64,000 nt of DNA from a virus. A program made the position numbers and the translations under genes. The DNA lies in the IMG/VR virus record IMGVR_UViG_3300027714_000008, positions 34,739 through 98,738 of that record. The stretch is one strand, 5' to 3'. This document shows positions 33,292-42,678 of this stretch, piece by piece. The notes beneath the pieces are model-generated. The model saw only the letters and a program-made list of their open reading frames with translations. It did no database searches and was not told the origin of the DNA. Positions within the stretch are counted from its first letter, which is position 1, and each line of letters opens with the position of its first letter.

Positions 33292-34641
33292 TTACAATTG
33301 AATTACGATTTTAATATCTTCGGTTTGGTCTGTGGCTCTAGTAATAGCGGCTCTATTTTCAACATACAACACTTCACCTGAATTTATGTTAATGTTTGGA
33401 GTTGTCCATGTACTTGCACTATCTAGTGTTCCAGCACCATTACCATCTGTCTCAGTCAAGGCTTCGGCAGTTGTAAATGCAGTAAAGCCTGTGTCCTCTG
33501 TCTGATGGTAACGTATTATCTTAGTCGATGTGCTATATGTATCAACGTATGCTTTAGCACCAGAAGACCCACCTAAGATAGTATTATCAGGAGTGAATGC
33601 TGTCGTCTGTGATGCTACTAATAAACTTTTAAGAGCAAATCCAGATGCCGCTGTAAAGTCGGAATCAGTTGTAGGGACTAATGGATTTTTAATTAAAGCT
33701 ACTTGACGGAAATCATTATCAGTTATAAATGTGTTTGTTTCATTGCCAGCTGGTTTTGTATTGAACATAACAGCCTTTGCTCTAAGGTCATTTAAAGCGT
33801 TTGCACCAAAACCCTTATTAGGAGAAAGTACAGCACGTGCCGTAGCAGAACCAGCACCGAATGTTATAGTAGCTTTAGTGAAATCATGTCCGTGTCTAAT
33901 GCCACCAGTACCATTTGAATCTAATAGGATGTCTACGACTGCGCCACCACTTATAATTGCCGTGGCTGTACAACTGTCACCATCACCAACTACTGTGACT
34001 GTAGGAATTGATGAATAACCAGTACCACCAGATACAACACGAATACTACCGATTTGACCTGATATTGCCGCTGTCTGTACGCCCTTTTGTTCTACTAAAG
34101 CCGCCGCTGACGAACTGTCTGTTGTCCCAATCAATTTTACAGGAACAAAGTTTGCAGAAAGAAACTTGTTTGCGTCTGTAGCAGAAAGGGTGTAAAGGAA
34201 TTTCCAAGTGTAACCATCGGCTAATAAGAATGATGATGTTGCAGAGCCAGTTGGTTCTACAGTAGATGCTACAGCCGCACCAGTCGAGTCTTTACCTTGT
34301 TGTAGGCAAATATACACTGCATTATCGTCTGTGATAACAAAGTATGGTGTAGTAGGATGCGAAGCTATGTTATCGTCCCAACCATCATAAAGTGTACCAG
34401 CTGTCCAGTTATTTCTAGGAACAACATAAGAAACGTCTTCACCAGATTTAATTGATTGAAGTTGCAATCTTAAATTACGTTCTTCTCTTAAAGTATTAAC
34501 AGGTGTTGGAGCTGTGTCTGAACTATCCCAATCGATAGAGTTACCTATACCGATATAATAAGATGCTGCTGTTGTTCCAACTTCTGCGATAAGACTATCA
34601 AGAAGTACCCTTTTTAAACTGTCAGTAATAATGCCTGTCAT
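33292..34641 (-). CDS. 8: Baseplate wedge protein gp8
   Basis: A 449-aa protein (T4 gp8 is 334 aa). The match is clear at the C-terminus: HQTEDTGF... then NSGEVLYVENRAAITRATDQ and TEDIKIVIQL, aligning to T4 HSGEMIYMENRPPIIMAMDQ-TEEINILFTF. The N-terminal ASYYIGIGNSIDW, VPRNNWTAGTLYD and GYTWKFLYTLS also correspond. An additional central domain (VTVVGDGDSCTATAIISGG-type beta repeats) explains the greater length. Confidence 0.9.
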   Translation of the reverse strand: MTGIITDSLKRVLLDSLIAEVGTTAASYYIGIGNSIDWDSSDTAPTPVNTLREERNLRLQLQSIKSGEDVSYVVPRNNWTAGTLYDGWDDNIASHPTTPYFVITDDNAVYICLQQGKDSTGAAVASTVEPTGSATSSFLLADGYTWKFLYTLSATDANKFLSANFVPVKLIGTTDSSSAAALVEQKGVQTAAISGQIGSIRVVSGGTGYSSIPTVTVVGDGDSCTATAIISGGAVVDILLDSNGTGGIRHGHDFTKATITFGAGSATARAVLSPNKGFGANALNDLRAKAVMFNTKPAGNETNTFITDNDFRQVALIKNPLVPTTDSDFTAASGFALKSLLVASQTTAFTPDNTILGGSSGAKAYVDTYSTSTKIIRYHQTEDTGFTAFTTAEALTETDGNGAGTLDSASTWTTPNININSGEVLYVENRAAITRATDQTEDIKIVIQL

Positions 34642-36715: not shown

Positions 36716-38550
36716 TATAGGGCTACTTGTGTCTTGCCGTAATCTACTGTACCAGCAGTAAACGATCTAGTTGTATCGATATTTAGTACATAATTTCTAA
36801 GGGGTGTAACAGTTCCTTGATTTGCAGGAGTTACTGATATTCTAATATAATCAACTCCACCAGAAATTGATACTGGTGCAAACCCTGTTATTGAAATAAC
36901 ACCAGTCGTAGCATTGTAAGTACCCACGTTACTGATTTGAATACCACCATCTGCATCAACAACTTGAAGTTGTGTAGAACTTAATAGATTGCGTATAGTA
37001 CATAGCTTACTATTAAATGTAAATGTGTTAGAACTGACAATATAGTGAACATCGTCTGGTACGGCGAGTTGGACAGGGAAAGTGACATCGTATGCCTTGG
37101 ATGTTGCCAATGTAGGCACAAACCTTCGTTGCAACTTTAGGTCTATTTTTGAATTTAAAATAGAGTCACCTATGTTATCAATCTCTGTAAGTAAATTAGA
37201 CCTTCTGAATGTTTTACCGAATGCGTTTAGATTAGTTGTAAAGTAGTTTGACACAATCGTAGCAACATTAGTTTCGGCACTTTTTAATGTGACGTTGGTT
37301 TTATTAGGGTTGAAGTTAAACAATGTCGATGTTTCAAGAAACGTTATAACAGGATCAACAAACTTTGTATCTATTGTCATAATAGCCAAAGGCTTAATAA
37401 GATTAGTTATGATTTCATCTTGAGTAGCAACCTTTGATGCGGCTGATGTCGTATCAGGAAACTTGAGAGATACAAACACTTTACCATATTCTGGTGTAGG
37501 TAAGTTATCTTCTCCGCCCCAAGCAATACAATCAGATACAGCTGGATATTTTGAAAGAATTAAAGCCTTATAGTCGTCGGCAGTAACAAGTCTGTTTTGA
37601 GCAGAGAATGCAATAGGAGCATTTGATCTAATAGACTCTATTGTTTCTTTGTCTGCACCGCCACTTGCGACTGTAGATGTCGTTGATACAATAGTATAAG
37701 CAGTACCATCAACTGTGATTGTGTTAGTTGGAGTGTATGTAGCACCACCATTTGACAATGCACCTTTAGAGGATAAGTACGACACAACGATCTTATTGCC
37801 AGCAACAGGAGCTAGTCCAGTTGTAATGCCGTCACTGAATGATAATTCATAGAAAGCATTAGGGGATTCTCTTAATTGGAAAAGCCTTGAACTTGTGTCA
37901 ACTGTAATTGCCTTATGTAATTCCGAGTACACAATGAAATCAGAAGAAGCTGATGAAGTGAATACGTTTATTGCAACAGTTTTTGTATCAATGGACGTTT
38001 CAGGAATGACATAAATCTGACGATCTGTGGCTGAACCAACATAGAATGTTTTTGTTTTTAGAGTGCCTTCGACTAAAGGTATTGCCGTAGTACCAAGAGC
38101 ACTTAGGAAAGAATAGTTACCTGTGCCGTCATCAGTAGCAGTGTGTGCCTCAAGCGTATAGAATGTGTATGAAATGTCATCAACACTTGTAGTAAAAGTA
38201 GAATACTTTGGTAGCGTTATTGTAGCTGGTCTGCCTACAGCAGTAATAGTAGTCGATAGAGCTACGTGTGCAGTTGCAGAAGTAATTGATTTTGGATTGT
38301 ATCCAAGTGTTTCTGCATGTGACACAACAGATGATCGTAATTGTGCTGTATTTAAAAATGATTCATTAAGGGCAAAGTTTGCAACTAACCCATTGAAGTG
38401 AGTGTTGTGTGCCAAGACATCAAGTATGTTTGATAATCCAGATGCTTCAAAGTTATAATCAGCGAACTCGGTTTGTTGTGACAAGTGCGTTTTAAGACTT
38501 GTTTTGATTGTTGCAAAGTCGAGTTGGGTTGACTTGATATTAGTAGCCAT
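36715..38550 (-). CDS. 6: Baseplate wedge protein gp6
   Basis: A 611-aa protein (T4 gp6 is 660 aa). The N-terminus has TSLKTHLSQQTEFADYNFEA and LDVLAHNTHFNGLVANFALN, the hallmark gp6 opening shared with gpJ-like proteins of other contractile machines; SAQNRLVTADDYKALILSKY is the conserved central motif. gp6 dimers tie wedges into the inner baseplate ring. It follows gene 25 by 1 bp, the typical 25-6 pair. Confidence 0.94.
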   Translation of the reverse strand: MATNIKSTQLDFATIKTSLKTHLSQQTEFADYNFEASGLSNILDVLAHNTHFNGLVANFALNESFLNTAQLRSSVVSHAETLGYNPKSITSATAHVALSTTITAVGRPATITLPKYSTFTTSVDDISYTFYTLEAHTATDDGTGNYSFLSALGTTAIPLVEGTLKTKTFYVGSATDRQIYVIPETSIDTKTVAINVFTSSASSDFIVYSELHKAITVDTSSRLFQLRESPNAFYELSFSDGITTGLAPVAGNKIVVSYLSSKGALSNGGATYTPTNTITVDGTAYTIVSTTSTVASGGADKETIESIRSNAPIAFSAQNRLVTADDYKALILSKYPAVSDCIAWGGEDNLPTPEYGKVFVSLKFPDTTSAASKVATQDEIITNLIKPLAIMTIDTKFVDPVITFLETSTLFNFNPNKTNVTLKSAETNVATIVSNYFTTNLNAFGKTFRRSNLLTEIDNIGDSILNSKIDLKLQRRFVPTLATSKAYDVTFPVQLAVPDDVHYIVSSNTFTFNSKLCTIRNLLSSTQLQVVDADGGIQISNVGTYNATTGVISITGFAPVSISGGVDYIRISVTPANQGTVTPLRNYVLNIDTTRSFTAGTVDYGKTQVAL

Positions 38551-38551
38551 A

Positions 38552-38995
38552 TTATCTTAGCCTCGTTATGTTTGTTTCGAGTGTTACAATCTCATCGGAG
38601 CTTACTACTTGAAATGTTAAGCTGATACTGATACTATTAGCATCAGGTTGTAGATTAGTAACGACGTTTTTTACTTTTGCTCTTGGTTCGTATCTATTTA
38701 GAACTGATCTAATGACAGTATCAATTTCGAATATGCTGTCGTTATCTGCTAATTGAAAAAGAATGTTGTTTAAATCCCCACCAAAACTAGGTTGAAAAGG
38801 CTTCTCATATTTATTAGTCAATAGTAGGTTCTTAACAGCTTGTTTAACAGCCGCTGCATCTGTCTTCTTGAATATTTCACCAGAAGGTTTCTTTGCAAAT
38901 GTTAAATCTATATCACTGAACAATTTATTACGAGTTGTTACAATAGATCTAGCACCTAAGTTGCCGTCTTCCACTGAAAATGCTCTTGATACCAT
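38552..38995 (-). CDS. 25: Baseplate wedge protein gp25
   Basis: A 147-aa protein of the gp25/GPW family: SDIDLTFAKKPSGEIFKKTD, AVKQAVKNLLLTNKYEKPFQ, PSFGGDLNNILFQLADN and the conserved YEPRAKV segment. gp25 has a lysozyme-like fold but no lysozyme active site and starts sheath assembly with gp6 and gp53. T4 gp25 is 132 aa. The late box at 39116 lies 121 bp upstream. Confidence 0.94.
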   Translation of the reverse strand: MVSRAFSVEDGNLGARSIVTTRNKLFSDIDLTFAKKPSGEIFKKTDAAAVKQAVKNLLLTNKYEKPFQPSFGGDLNNILFQLADNDSIFEIDTVIRSVLNRYEPRAKVKNVVTNLQPDANSISISLTFQVVSSDEIVTLETNITRLR

Positions 38996-39023
38996 TTTTA
39001 TTCGCTTTTTATTAACTTTAGGG

Positions 39024-39052
39024 TTGACAACTTAGTATAACGTGTATATAAT
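39024..39052 (+). promoter_or_regulatory. Perfect consensus sigma70 promoter with no gene
   Basis: TTGACA at 39024-39029, a 17-bp spacer and TATAAT at 39047-39052 form an exact consensus promoter on the plus strand, in a 144-bp gap where both neighbours are on the minus strand. Downstream there is only a 23-codon frame (ATG at 39067) and an imperfect hairpin (39070-39089) followed by CTTTT; beyond that, transcription would be antisense to the needle gene. See the findings. Confidence 0.85.
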
Positions 39053-39115
39053 AAAGAAGTAATATATGAAGCCCAGTATATACTCAGCTCTTTTAGAATC
39101 ATTACTAATTAAGTT

Positions 39116-39123
39116 TATTTATA
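39116..39123 (-). promoter_or_regulatory. T4-type late promoter for genes 25 and 6
   Basis: An exact TATAAATA on the minus strand in the same gap, directed leftward toward gene 25. Confidence 0.8.
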
Positions 39124-39139
39124 ACACTTATTACTAATC

Positions 39140-41113
39140 TTATAATTCATGTAAAATTAAATCACTAGAAGATAACACATTACCATTATATCTTGTTTCT
39201 ACTTCGCTTTTAAAATTACCATCAGTCACATCATAACTTTCGTTTAACATAGGGCTTATGATTATCAACTGACAACTTAATGGCACTTTAGGATCATAGC
39301 TATCATAGTCTAATATTATTTTCTGTGTAGTGGCTAAATCTTTTAAAAGATCAGCAAGCCAAAACGTTTTTTCAATATCTACAATACCAGACTCGTTTTG
39401 TATTTCCCATACAGCCGCACGTCCTTCTGACTTGTATTTATTAACACTATCTGACCACCCTTTTGATGCAACATCGTTTGGTCTTACATTGTAAAGACCT
39501 TCTATTACAACTATTCTATAATTATGCATCTCATTCTTAAATTGAGGGTCATTATACTTTTGTAATATATCAGCGTTCACTTGAAAATTTCTGGCTATCT
39601 GCGCTCTATCTTTTTTAGGAACTTGAGATATTATTCCAGTCGCACCTTTAGCACCAGTATATGTCGCCAAGGTTATTGATCCTGACAACTTAGTTTTATT
39701 ATTAATAATAGCATCGTTTTTTATAACTATCTCTGGTTGATAATTAACACTTGGATTAGTATCTGGCACAACAAAAGCAATGTTATTACCTCTTGATGCA
39801 CTGCCAGCAGAATTTCTACTAGTTCTTGGTGACGACTTTTTACTTTTAATCTCAACTAAATTTGGTGGGTTGGTTTTTGCATATGATGGAGATAAAATTC
39901 CAGACGCTATTGCTTGACCAATAAATGCTGTATTAGTTTTATTACTAGGAGTTCTTAGTGCCGCACGCACTTCTTGTATATTCAATTCTTTTGTAGAGAA
40001 GCCACCTGTAGCTTTTGTTTTATCTAATGCTCTTAATAGATGATCGTCAATATCTACTTTAACATCTACAGCACCTATTGTTGTGTTGAATAATAAATCA
40101 TTTACAATAGCCGTCGTCGGTGCAGCCGTTGTAGGAGTTGCTGTATCTGTGATAGCAGTACCACCTGATGTTGCAGTTGCGGCATACGATTGTGATCTTG
40201 CAATTTGTGCTATACCTTTTAACGATCCGTGGAATGTAGGTGCAGTAACTCCAGCTACAAACGTAGCTCCTTTGCCGTACATTGTAATATCCGTACCACC
40301 AATTGTTCCTGTTCCACCAAAGACTGATAGATTAGTTGCCGCAATGTTCATATTAGCAGACGATTGATGTAATCTAGTTCTAGCACTGATTTGCGTAACT
40401 GAGCCTGATGAAAGATGCATATCGCCTTGAGATGTAACTCTTGCAACACCTTTGATAACTTGTGTCATATCACCTAATACAGTGTTAGTCATTGATTTGA
40501 TAACAGTTTTAGATGCGTGTCCTTTTGTTATATGACCAGTGTTCTTTTCTACAATAGTTCTGGAAGAACCTTCTATATTCTCAATCTTATCTTCACCAAC
40601 AGTTAATTTATATTCACCATTGACTTTAACATTGTAATCACCAGCTATCTCCATATCTACGTTACCACCATATACTATTTTGGCGTCACCTAAGATAGTG
40701 ATATGTTGATCTTTTGATACTGATATAATTTGAGACCCCGAAGCGATTATCATTCTTCCGTCTTGGCGTATTTCAACACCATTACCTGAATTGTGCTTTA
40801 GTATTATTCTTTCGTTACCAGGAGTGTCGTCCATTTCAAAGCTATGACCAGTTGCAGTCGTGGTTGCTCTATTCAATGTTCTTTGAGATGGAACTGGATC
40901 AGAACTTATTAACTTATCAAATCCACCAACAAGGCTGAGACTTGTATAATCTGCACCAATAGAAACTCTTGGTGTCGTACCTGTATACCAATTTTTAAAC
41001 TGAGGGTATACGCCAGTGACGTCAGAATACAAATCTGTCTCTTTGCCCTGCTGAACTACAATAGGTCCTAGCCTTAGCTGTCTTTCGTTAAGATTATCAT
41101 TAGATGTTGTCAT
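39140..41113 (-). CDS. Beta-helix needle / tail hub protein (657 aa)
   Basis: A 657-aa protein. Residues about 90-260 carry repeated short beta strands (GVEIRQDGRMIIASGSQIIS, ITILGDAKIVYGGNVDMEIA, DYNVKVNGEYKLTV) typical of the gp5 C-terminal/VgrG beta-helix spike. The N-terminus starts RLGPIVVQQGKETDLYSDV; the C-terminal half (from about 330) is a separate domain with YRIVVIEGLYNVRPNDVASKG and AAVWEIQNESGIVDIEKTFW, not recognised. T4 gp5 has OB, lysozyme and beta-helix parts in one chain; here the needle is its own gene. Confidence 0.75.
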   Translation of the reverse strand: MTTSNDNLNERQLRLGPIVVQQGKETDLYSDVTGVYPQFKNWYTGTTPRVSIGADYTSLSLVGGFDKLISSDPVPSQRTLNRATTTATGHSFEMDDTPGNERIILKHNSGNGVEIRQDGRMIIASGSQIISVSKDQHITILGDAKIVYGGNVDMEIAGDYNVKVNGEYKLTVGEDKIENIEGSSRTIVEKNTGHITKGHASKTVIKSMTNTVLGDMTQVIKGVARVTSQGDMHLSSGSVTQISARTRLHQSSANMNIAATNLSVFGGTGTIGGTDITMYGKGATFVAGVTAPTFHGSLKGIAQIARSQSYAATATSGGTAITDTATPTTAAPTTAIVNDLLFNTTIGAVDVKVDIDDHLLRALDKTKATGGFSTKELNIQEVRAALRTPSNKTNTAFIGQAIASGILSPSYAKTNPPNLVEIKSKKSSPRTSRNSAGSASRGNNIAFVVPDTNPSVNYQPEIVIKNDAIINNKTKLSGSITLATYTGAKGATGIISQVPKKDRAQIARNFQVNADILQKYNDPQFKNEMHNYRIVVIEGLYNVRPNDVASKGWSDSVNKYKSEGRAAVWEIQNESGIVDIEKTFWLADLLKDLATTQKIILDYDSYDPKVPLSCQLIIISPMLNESYDVTDGNFKSEVETRYNGNVLSSSDLILHEL

Positions 41114-42678
41114 TAATTCTGTCTCGCTGTAATCAATGCAGACCTACTTAAAGGTCCTAGATTATTATTGTATTGTACTGCGTTTGATTTACTAAAGGTG
41201 TTTAGTATATATGCGTCAACGTCAAACCCAGGATCGATGTCGTTGTTTTCTGTACATTGATTATGACCTAATACTTGTCCACTCTGAAATACTTTATAGA
41301 ATATTCTTAGGAAATCTTTCTGTGCTTTCATTTGTGCCACTGTAATTGATTCTGATGATAAGAAAGACTCTGGGTTGTCTGTTCCTGATAGACAATTATA
41401 ACCTGCAACGTGGGCTATACCAATACTGTACTGGTTGTGTCCAAAGTCGTTTGCATGCGCACCTTCTATATTTAAAGGTCTGCCTCGTTGTATTGTTCCG
41501 TCTCTTTTAATTATATAGTGATAACCTAGTCCAGAAAATCCTGTACCTGTATGCCATTGATGAATATCTTCTGCACCAATGTGTGGTTGATCAATAAAAT
41601 TACCTGTCCAGTGAATTACTGTCTCAGTTATTTCTCTTGTACAATTAGAAAGTTCTGCCTCTAATTCATCTAAACTTGAAACTATACTAAACGAATAGCC
41701 TTTCTTATTAGATGCTGGACTTTTTATTACAGTCGAAGCACCTTGCCATTCACCATTTTGTGATCCAATAGTATAAACTGGTGCAGTAGAGATGCCAAGG
41801 TTTGCATAGACAGAGTTCAATTGATTTACTAAAGAGCCAACTGATGTGTCAATATTAGATAGTTCGGTTTCAATTTGAATTGCAGTTAAGTTAGAATAAC
41901 CATTTAATAGATTTGCGGCTGTAAGATAATCTTTTTTATCTAAGAGCGCAGACACTTGTTTCCTTGTCTCGTTAGGAACTATGATGCCTGTGTCTTGTGT
42001 TAGTTGACCTATTGCATATCCTATAGGATCTATTGTTGCACCTATTATATCTTTAATAGATTGATTAAACCCCTGATCAAAAAACTTAGTTAATCCAGAA
42101 GTGATATTATTAGTTGATGTCTCTAAATCTTTAAAAATGCCACTCGGTAAACCATCGACAGTGCTTGCAAATTGGCTTATAACTGAACTTGATGATAATG
42201 CTTTAGTAGCATTAGGTGCAACACTTTCCATTGCACTTGACAGTTTGTCTAATGCAAGACCCGATTGTTGTTGCAAAGCAGACGCAATAGCTTCTGGTGT
42301 GGGCATAGCTAAAACAGTGCTATTAATTCCTATCTTTATATCGTCTGAAAGTCCTGTGATAGTTTTTAAAGCATCACTTGAGCCACTAGCAAAATCATTC
42401 GTAAGATTTACACCTTGAGGATTTTCTTCAAGTAAAGCAACTCCTTTGTTAATAACAGTAGTATCTGCTTCAACTAATCCATCAATCTCTTGCGTCAATG
42501 CTTTCCAACCACCATGAATTTTACCAACAGTAAGCCCAACCTGTGTTGACTGTAAGGCAGTAAACTTTGATTGCGCAGATATAGCGGCAGTTTGAATCAC
42601 ATCAAAGTTATTTGTATTGGCTAAAGATTTGATTGTTTGATTTAAATTTTTTAAACTTACTGTAGGAGTAGTAACCAT
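41113..42678 (-). CDS. Hub-encoded N-acetylmuramoyl-L-alanine amidase (521 aa)
   Basis: A 521-aa protein. Residues 1-300 are helical and Ser/Thr/Asn-rich without a known domain. The C-terminal 170 residues are an amidase_2/PGRP domain: ETVIHWTGNF (first zinc His), GLGYHYIIKRDGTIQRGRPL, GAHANDFGHNQYSIGIAHV, and GHNQCTENNDIDPGFDVDAY, where the last His and an Asp, in the place of the T7 lysozyme Cys, would complete an AmpD-type zinc site. It cleaves the bond between MurNAc and L-Ala. It lies between the gp5-like and needle genes, linked by overlaps, so it is probably a virion-associated hydrolase. Confidence 0.82.
   Translation of the reverse strand: MVTTPTVSLKNLNQTIKSLANTNNFDVIQTAAISAQSKFTALQSTQVGLTVGKIHGGWKALTQEIDGLVEADTTVINKGVALLEENPQGVNLTNDFASGSSDALKTITGLSDDIKIGINSTVLAMPTPEAIASALQQQSGLALDKLSSAMESVAPNATKALSSSSVISQFASTVDGLPSGIFKDLETSTNNITSGLTKFFDQGFNQSIKDIIGATIDPIGYAIGQLTQDTGIIVPNETRKQVSALLDKKDYLTAANLLNGYSNLTAIQIETELSNIDTSVGSLVNQLNSVYANLGISTAPVYTIGSQNGEWQGASTVIKSPASNKKGYSFSIVSSLDELEAELSNCTREITETVIHWTGNFIDQPHIGAEDIHQWHTGTGFSGLGYHYIIKRDGTIQRGRPLNIEGAHANDFGHNQYSIGIAHVAGYNCLSGTDNPESFLSSESITVAQMKAQKDFLRIFYKVFQSGQVLGHNQCTENNDIDPGFDVDAYILNTFSKSNAVQYNNNLGPLSRSALITARQN

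What the first reader, a model, noticed from the sequence alone, without database searches (positions are those of the whole stretch)
39024..39123. Perfect sigma70 promoter with no gene, facing antisense into the needle gene
TTGACA-N17-TATAAT is an exact consensus, better than any other promoter in this window, yet it lies in a 144-bp gap between two leftward late genes. Its transcript would hold a 23-codon frame (ATG at 39067), an imperfect hairpin (39070-39089) followed by CTTTT, the reverse of the gene 25 late promoter, and then the antisense of the hub needle gene. It could make a small regulatory RNA, a micropeptide, or an early antisense RNA that blocks late hub expression.
Basis: partly seen in the sequence, partly recalled or inferred. 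Interest (0 to 1): 0.65.

Follow-up and report, generated by a model that had tools for sequence, protein, structure and literature searches.

The report
Conserved backward-facing early phage promoter
A perfect bacterial-type promoter pointing the "wrong way" between two late tail genes of a marine T4-like phage is not an accident: the same promoter element recurs in gaps between other genes across a family of phages, mostly without a gene behind it, so these phages probably make an unrecognised early non-coding RNA.

Summary
TTGACA-N17-TATAAT at 39024-39052 (+) is the only exact consensus in the window (0.06 expected) and lies in the 144-bp gap between leftward gp25 and gp5, facing the gp25 late promoter. 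The conservation test is passed: a relative (94% gp25) differs at 8 of 153 positions, none in the -35, the -10, the 34 bases downstream or the late promoter. The record has one other exact copy, sharing 25 contiguous bases, in the gap between the gene after uvsW and gp55, again antisense. That second site is the widespread one: 33 of 62 distinct gp55 gaps carry an antisense promoter of at least 11/12 (shuffles 0.43), as do 15 of 16 cultured Kyanoviridae at 10/12 or better. Many copies add a palindrome centred on the expected start site whose sequence changes freely. No conserved reading frame follows; the 23-codon frame and the hairpin-terminator fail. Best reading: an early non-coding antisense RNA opposing late transcription. 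The mechanism is inferred; a replication-primer (T4 oriE-like) role is a rival, and a skew test went against it. New variant of a known kind; interest 0.6.

The parts
39024..39029 (+). -35 hexamer TTGACA of the antisense promoter
   Evidence: unchanged in L007/L008; TTTACA in L009/L010
39030..39046 (+). 17-bp spacer; holds 4 of the 8 differences to L007
   Evidence: 39031, 39038, 39040, 39041
39047..39052 (+). -10 hexamer TATAAT
39039..39063 (+). 25-nt block identical to the second copy of the element in the same virus record (G000:C1, promoter 33814-33842)
39053..39086 (+). conserved region after the -10 (expected start about 39059): no difference to L007; its first 11 bases also identical in the second copy
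39075..39084 (+). AGTATATACT, perfect 10-bp palindrome (TATAC/GTATAC-like sequences recur in other copies)
39066..39137 (+).
39116..39123 (-). T4-type late promoter TATAAATA for gp25; the antisense RNA would run through it
38552..38995 (-). gp25 baseplate wedge gene
39140..41113 (-). gp5-like baseplate hub gene, read antisense by the proposed RNA
   Evidence: PHROG 430, E 3.3e-24; Pfam Gp5_trimer_C below its cut-off

Best explanation
The site is a working host-type sigma70 promoter of early type. It belongs to a small family of gap-located elements whose widespread copy lies in the gap upstream of the late sigma factor gene gp55 and points antisense into the 3' end of the operon in front of it (in this phage: tail gene, uvsY, an 83-aa gene, uvsW, a small gene). 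At the window site it starts a non-coding RNA at about 39059 that runs rightward over the gp25 late promoter and into the gp5 gene in antisense. Shown here: sequence, orientation, conservation, shared sequence between copies, absence of a conserved reading frame. Inferred: that it is transcribed early; that its job is to oppose late transcription at these junctions, by polymerase collision and by pairing with the late mRNA leader, until late RNA polymerase takes over; and that the palindrome at the start site in many copies is a control site for a factor that changes along with it.
For: Exact promoter, unique in the window. Two exact copies in the 98.7-kb record, sharing 25 contiguous bases, both antisense to leftward genes. 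Constraint pattern of a promoter: differences to L007 fall in the spacer and beyond 39086, none in hexamers, start region or late promoter. L009/L010 (73% gp25) keep a TTTACA-N16-TATAAT version at the same place. gp55 gap: antisense score >=11/12 in 33 of 62 distinct gaps against 0.43 (max 3) in shuffles, >=10 in 54 of 62 against 4.72 (max 9); 15 of 16 cultured phages >=10/12 against 0.87 (max 4). Third site, before or near a DUF7207 gene, in L095, L097, L112/L285 and L287. Late promoter at 39123(-) for gp25 and at 2321(-) heading the operon that ends at the gp55 gap. In two cyanophages the same cassette precedes cp12, reported as co-expressed in early infection in a passage of review PMC6359870. 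Palindrome: stems of at least 5 bp right after the -10 in 23 of 68 copies against 0.95 (max 5) shuffled and 4.3 (max 11) with halves swapped; 23 of the 24 found anywhere in the first 34 nt are centred 6.5-9.0 nt after the -10, with many different arm sequences.
Against: No RNA data. The window copy itself has neither the start-site palindrome nor the G-run. The gp25-gap site is confined to the close clade: 10 of 80 gp25 loci carry the element pattern, 0 of the 70 at 58% identity or less, and six of the ten have the window's own sequence. Some cassettes of this kind drive ordinary sense genes, so antisense placement is not a rule for the promoter type. 4 of the 79 gp55 loci scanned score 9 or less for any antisense promoter (L176, L239, L243, L244), and several others with a score of 10 lie outside the usual place. 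No terminator was found, so the length of the RNA is unknown.
Confidence: 0.5

Rival explanations
1. The element is a transcription-primed replication origin, like T4 oriE/oriF: the early transcript forms an R-loop and primes leading-strand synthesis; the few copies per genome are several origins.
For: T4 oriE uses an early-mode promoter and most early T4 synthesis starts in regions dominated by late transcription (review PMC3016281, passages); that repEA/repEB lie between genes 5 and 6 and are antisense to late genes is recalled (Vaiskunaite 1999, not held). The window copy sits at the gp5 | gp25-gp6 junction; the second copy is next to uvsY-uvsW. Few copies per genome with shared sequence; G-rich non-template strand in most gp55-gap copies.
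Against: Fourfold-site GC skew on the two sides of the gp55 gap runs against the prediction (predicted direction in only 10 of 43 loci). No iteron-like repeats around either copy. Copies before cp12 and other sense genes look like gene promoters.
Confidence: 0.15
2. It is simply the ordinary early promoter and leader of these phages, left behind where a small early gene was lost, or copied in; the antisense RNA does nothing.
For: Sense early-type genes in relatives have a very similar cassette, including a Shine-Dalgarno-like G-run (L276-L284). No frame follows in antisense copies.
Against: The gp55-gap copy is kept across very diverged phages, usually 28-37 nt from the upstream stop codon (23-32 nt in 13 of the 15 cultured ones), which a relic would not be. 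In G000 the sense early-type promoters lack the 25-nt block; only the two antisense copies match in full.
Confidence: 0.2
3. A 23-codon micropeptide is made from 39066.
For: An ATG frame exists; L009 also has a 26-codon ATG frame at the same place (by eye).
Against: The two peptides are unrelated; no frame is kept at the gp55 site (GTG followed at once by TAA in several copies); changes between the window and L007 are not biased to synonymous sites.
Confidence: 0.04
4. The conserved feature belongs to the sense strand: a C-rich signal after the stop codon of the upstream operon (for example a Rho site or an mRNA 3' end), and the antisense promoter is incidental.
For: The gp55-gap copies lie at a nearly fixed distance from the upstream stop codon and the sense strand there is C-rich and G-poor.
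Against: It does not explain TTKACA-N16/17-TATAAT, nor most of the cultured cyanophages, which keep the promoter without a C-run, nor the window copy, which lies about 87 nt from the gp5 stop and lacks the run.
Confidence: 0.1

Closest known systems
Bacteriophage T4 oriE region (repEA/repEB, gene 5-6 interval)
   Same: Early-type promoter opposed to late tail genes at the gene 5 boundary (review passages; the opposite strands of early and late transcripts are recalled).
   Different: No conserved frame like repEA/repEB, no iterons around the copies, skew test against an origin at the gp55 site, and here the element is dispersed.
CfrI antisense RNA of cyanophage S-PM2
   Same: Non-coding antisense RNA of a lytic T4-like marine phage, covering the 3' end of a gene (passages in PMC2984593; PMC9602691).
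   Different: Different locus (psbA / homing endonuclease); here the site is a core replication/late-control junction kept across the family.
Syn9/P-TIM40 early regulatory element (Doron et al. 2016)
   Same: Recalled abstract: a novel regulatory element controlled early-gene transcription in T4-like cyanophages. The AACnCTGnCAGGGTT start-site motif could be part of it or the same thing.
   Different: Paper not held, so identity with that element, and whether it reported antisense sites, could not be checked. The motif occurs only a few times per genome, which does not look like a general early motif.
Halovirus HF2 intergenic repeats that carry promoters (PMC8707807)
   Same: Dispersed intergenic repeats acting as promoters in a tailed virus (search listing and start of abstract only).
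   Different: Archaeal virus and promoter type; not shown to be antisense in what I saw.

Membership tests
Bacterial sigma70-type promoter | -35 and -10 hexamers with 16-18 bp spacing | tested here: met
   12/12 with spacer 17
Bacterial sigma70-type promoter | Hexamers conserved in relatives while surroundings drift | tested here: met
   L007; L009/L010; gp55 site
Bacterial sigma70-type promoter | Transcript starts at the predicted position | not testable with these tools
   no RNA data
T4 oriE-type replication origin | Early-type promoter opposed to late genes near gene 5 | tested here: met
[quoted passage not shown]
   one 10-nt pair 245 bp apart in 801 bp around the window copy, none in 901 bp around the second copy
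T4 oriE-type replication origin | Small early genes repEA/repEB | tested here: not met
   23-codon frame not conserved
T4 oriE-type replication origin | Nucleotide skew shift at the site | tested here: not met
   gp55 site, 10 of 43 loci in the predicted direction; the window site itself was not tested this way
T4 oriE-type replication origin | DNA synthesis starts there | not testable with these tools
   needs infected cells
Cis-antisense RNA (CfrI-like) | Promoter giving RNA complementary to a neighbouring gene | tested here: inconclusive
   promoter and orientation met; RNA not shown
Known structured RNA family (Rfam) | Covariance-model match | tested here: not met
   no match in 38500-39700 at E<=1, none at gathering threshold in window, L084, L085
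Small protein gene | Reading frame conserved among copies | tested here: not met

The most novel reading that the evidence does not exclude
Kyanoviridae-type phages share a non-coding antisense promoter system: an early sigma70 promoter with a start-site-centred palindrome, kept in the gap upstream of the late sigma factor gene and copied to further late-gene junctions in some lineages, read by a factor that changes lineage by lineage together with all copies in a genome, and used to hold back late operons until the early-to-late switch.
Probability: 0.3. Interest if true: 0.78.

Novelty: new variant of a known kind. Interest (0 to 1): 0.6.

Why it matters
How the abundant marine T4-like phages time early and late transcription is not settled: they lack the T4 proteins that retarget host RNA polymerase (passages of PMC2984593). 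A promoter that opposes the operon in front of the late sigma factor gene in 15 of 16 cultured members examined, with predicted start coordinates, makes one part of that question directly testable by re-reading existing strand-specific RNA-seq.

Tried and rejected
Micropeptide: frame not conserved. Hairpin-terminator at 39070-39094: no folding signal. Rfam: nothing. Host mimic: the start-region pattern in GTDB genomes gave 12 stretches, none with a near-consensus -35 (best 2 mismatches); taken as chance. Replication origin: skew and iteron tests went against it; kept as a rival. Blast of the type-C element against phages gave only short hits in streptococcal, lactococcal and Oceanotoga phages, E 0.04 and worse. 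The site near DUF7207 could not be tested in this phage, because the 98.7-kb record has no DUF7207 gene. I first called the copies 'type A/B/C' by their own sequence; for the DUF7207 site that label is circular, because the copies come from different contigs, so I claim shared sequence within one genome only for G000/G001 and for cultured genomes. The within-genome comparison is biased: the second copies were found with motif patterns, two of its rows (S-CAM4, S-CAM7) rest on 3-mismatch hits, and I set the 15-nt register by hand; its 0 of 20000 is not a clean probability. In one search, 19 of the 79 gp55 loci were left out of the alignment (7 duplicates; 12 with no, misplaced, truncated or doubtful promoter), so the alignment and the 68-row counts (the 60 kept plus 8 added copies) are of promoter-positive loci; the unselected figure is 33 of 62. 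One of the 80 loci (L170) was dropped earlier because its gene start is missing.

Full report
What is there. The window is bases 34739-98738 of a 98,738-base virus record. At 39024-39052 (+) stands TTGACA-N17-TATAAT, the only exact consensus in the window; shuffled sequence gives 0.06. It lies in the 144-bp gap between two leftward genes, gp25 (PHROG 261, Pfam GPW_gp25) and a gp5-like hub gene (PHROG 430). The gp25 late promoter TATAAATA is on the opposite strand at 39123-39116, so an RNA starting near 39059 would run through that promoter and into gp5 in antisense. The late mRNA leader of gp25 would in turn run over the antisense promoter.

Conservation at this site. Of 80 gp25 loci, ten carry the element pattern: six with the same gap sequence as the window, two at 94% gp25 identity (L007, L008) and two at 73% (L009, L010); the other 70 do not. 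Against L007, 8 of 153 positions differ: four in the spacer, four from 39087 on, none in -35, -10, 39053-39086 or the late promoter. L009/L010 keep TTTACA-N16-TATAAT and a TATTTATA late-promoter complement.

A second copy in the same genome. The record holds exactly one other exact consensus promoter, at G000:33814-33842. It shares AACGTGTATATAATAAAGAAGTAAT with the window copy, 25 contiguous bases across the -10 and start region, and lies in the gap between a 137-aa gene behind uvsW and the late sigma factor gene gp55. It too is antisense. A T4-type late promoter at window 2321(-) heads the operon (tail gene, uvsY, 83-aa gene, uvsW, 137-aa gene) that ends at this gap (the operon is inferred from gene order, the tail label from similarity by eye). 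Sequence-model search of the record finds full-length matches only at these two places; the sense early-type promoters of this phage do not match in full.

The gp55 gap is the widespread site. I took 80 gp55 loci from viral contigs (62-100% identity; more existed than the tool listed), dropped one without a gene start, and scanned the gap on the antisense strand. Among 62 distinct clear gaps, 33 score at least 11/12 and 54 at least 10/12, against 0.43 (max 3) and 4.72 (max 9) in dinucleotide shuffles. gp55's own, outward-facing promoter is there too (sense strand: 25 of 62 at 11/12 or better), so this is a divergent pair. The end of the -10 is usually 28-37 nt from the upstream stop codon. In 16 cultured phages of this group (fetched), 15 have an antisense promoter of at least 10/12, 14 of them with exact TTGACA and all 15 with a 17-bp spacer; shuffles give 0.87 of 16 (max 4). 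Methylophilales phage Melnitz is the exception. Loci are related, so these counts are not independent events. Two of the 16 records (Sf-FR1, Sf-FS3) carry no family name in their taxonomy line.

A third site. A copy lies in the gap between a possible head-scaffold-like gene (my guess; PHROG and Pfam gave no match for the L112 protein) and the gene that follows it, a DUF7207 gene in L097, L112/L285 and L287 and a kinase-like gene (by eye) in L095; always antisense. L288-L291 lack it, and the window's record has no DUF7207 gene.

Anatomy. Right after the -10 many copies have a palindrome. Stems of at least 5 perfect pairs occur in 23 of 68 aligned copies, against 0.95 (max 5) when the 24 bases are shuffled and 4.3 (max 11) when halves are exchanged between copies. 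Of 24 such stems found anywhere in the first 34 bases, 23 are centred 6.5-9.0 nt after the -10, where the start is expected, and the arms have many different sequences (CAAAG/CTTTG, CATAT/ATATG, AAGGC/GCCTT, CTTTT/AAAAG and others). Cultured cyanophages show a similar symmetry around position 8 (AACTCTG-T-CAGGGTT type, with G-T pairs and mismatches allowed and no control run). Because the centre is at the start site, half of it would not be transcribed, which favours a DNA site over an RNA hairpin; this depends on the true start, which is unmapped. A G-run and a TATAC sequence follow in most gp55-gap copies. The run resembles a Shine-Dalgarno sequence and similar leaders precede sense genes in relatives, but no conserved start codon or frame follows in the antisense copies. 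The window copy has neither palindrome nor G-run; its sister copy at the gp55 gap has a short G-run (GAAGGG) and no such palindrome.

Shared sequence within genomes. In cultured cyanophages the start-site motif occurs only a few times per genome: one copy at the gp55 gap, others before cp12 (S-SSM5, S-MbCM100), before small early-type genes (Syn9, S-SSM5, S-RIM4), or antisense in another gap before a helicase gene (Sf-FR1). The second copy tends to resemble the gp55-gap copy of its own genome: mean 13.6 of 15 within, 9.3 between. This suggests a trans-acting factor or gene conversion, but the second copies were found with motif patterns, so the comparison is biased. cp12 is listed as co-expressed in early infection in a review passage (PMC6359870), which fits early timing.

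Function. No step from promoter to effect is shown. The common denominator in this phage is an early-type promoter aimed at the 3' part of a late operon, so opposing late transcription is the simplest reading. The T4 oriE parallel is real in position and promoter class (PMC3016281 passages; the gene 5-6 position is recalled), but oriE's iterons and early genes are missing, and the skew at the gp55 gap has the predicted direction in only 10 of 43 loci.

Literature. Library searches and passages from PMC3016281, PMC3037559, PMC9602691, PMC6359870, PMC5082946, PMC2988020, PMC2984593, PMC3014915 and PMC5931967 mention the psbA antisense RNA CfrI but, in the passages I saw, no antisense promoter at gp55 or gp25. 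The two most relevant papers, on Syn9 transcription (Doron et al. 2016) and on T4 repEA/repEB (Vaiskunaite et al. 1999), are not held; what I say of them is recalled or second-hand. An earlier report of this element in Syn9 cannot be excluded.

Noticed in passing
G000:33740-33842 (L085 16240-16342): gp55's own promoter (TTTACA-N17-TATAAT, - strand) and the antisense one stand back to back about 35 bp apart: a divergent pair upstream of the late sigma factor gene, repeated in relatives.
   Followed up: yes
L095 1827-2825 versus L097 667-1119: A kinase-like gene (191 aa) lies between the antisense element and the DUF7207 gene in L095 but not in L097; the element stays next to the upstream gene's 3' end.
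   Followed up: no
window 2363, 2635, 51410, 62147, 62496 and several places in L084/L085: Sense early-type promoters of this phage (TTGACA with TATAAA-like -10) share leader words such as GTGAGTTAA, GTATAGAAACAAAGAAAG and GTGTAANCAA, a class apart from the antisense element.
   Followed up: no
L251 1432-1527 (MZ577097.1 132367-132462): In Methylophilales phage Melnitz a tiny minus-strand CDS is annotated across the gp55 gap; that phage is the one of 16 without a clear antisense promoter.
   Followed up: no
L126 and L130 (G004:8030, G005:2680): Another strong sense promoter, TTTACA-N17-TATAATA with a long conserved leader, in the L095/L097 relatives.
   Followed up: no
window 41113-42678: The gene next to gp5 encodes a C-terminal amidase_2 domain (Pfam PF01510) after a long unassigned N-terminal part, in the baseplate operon.
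   Followed up: no
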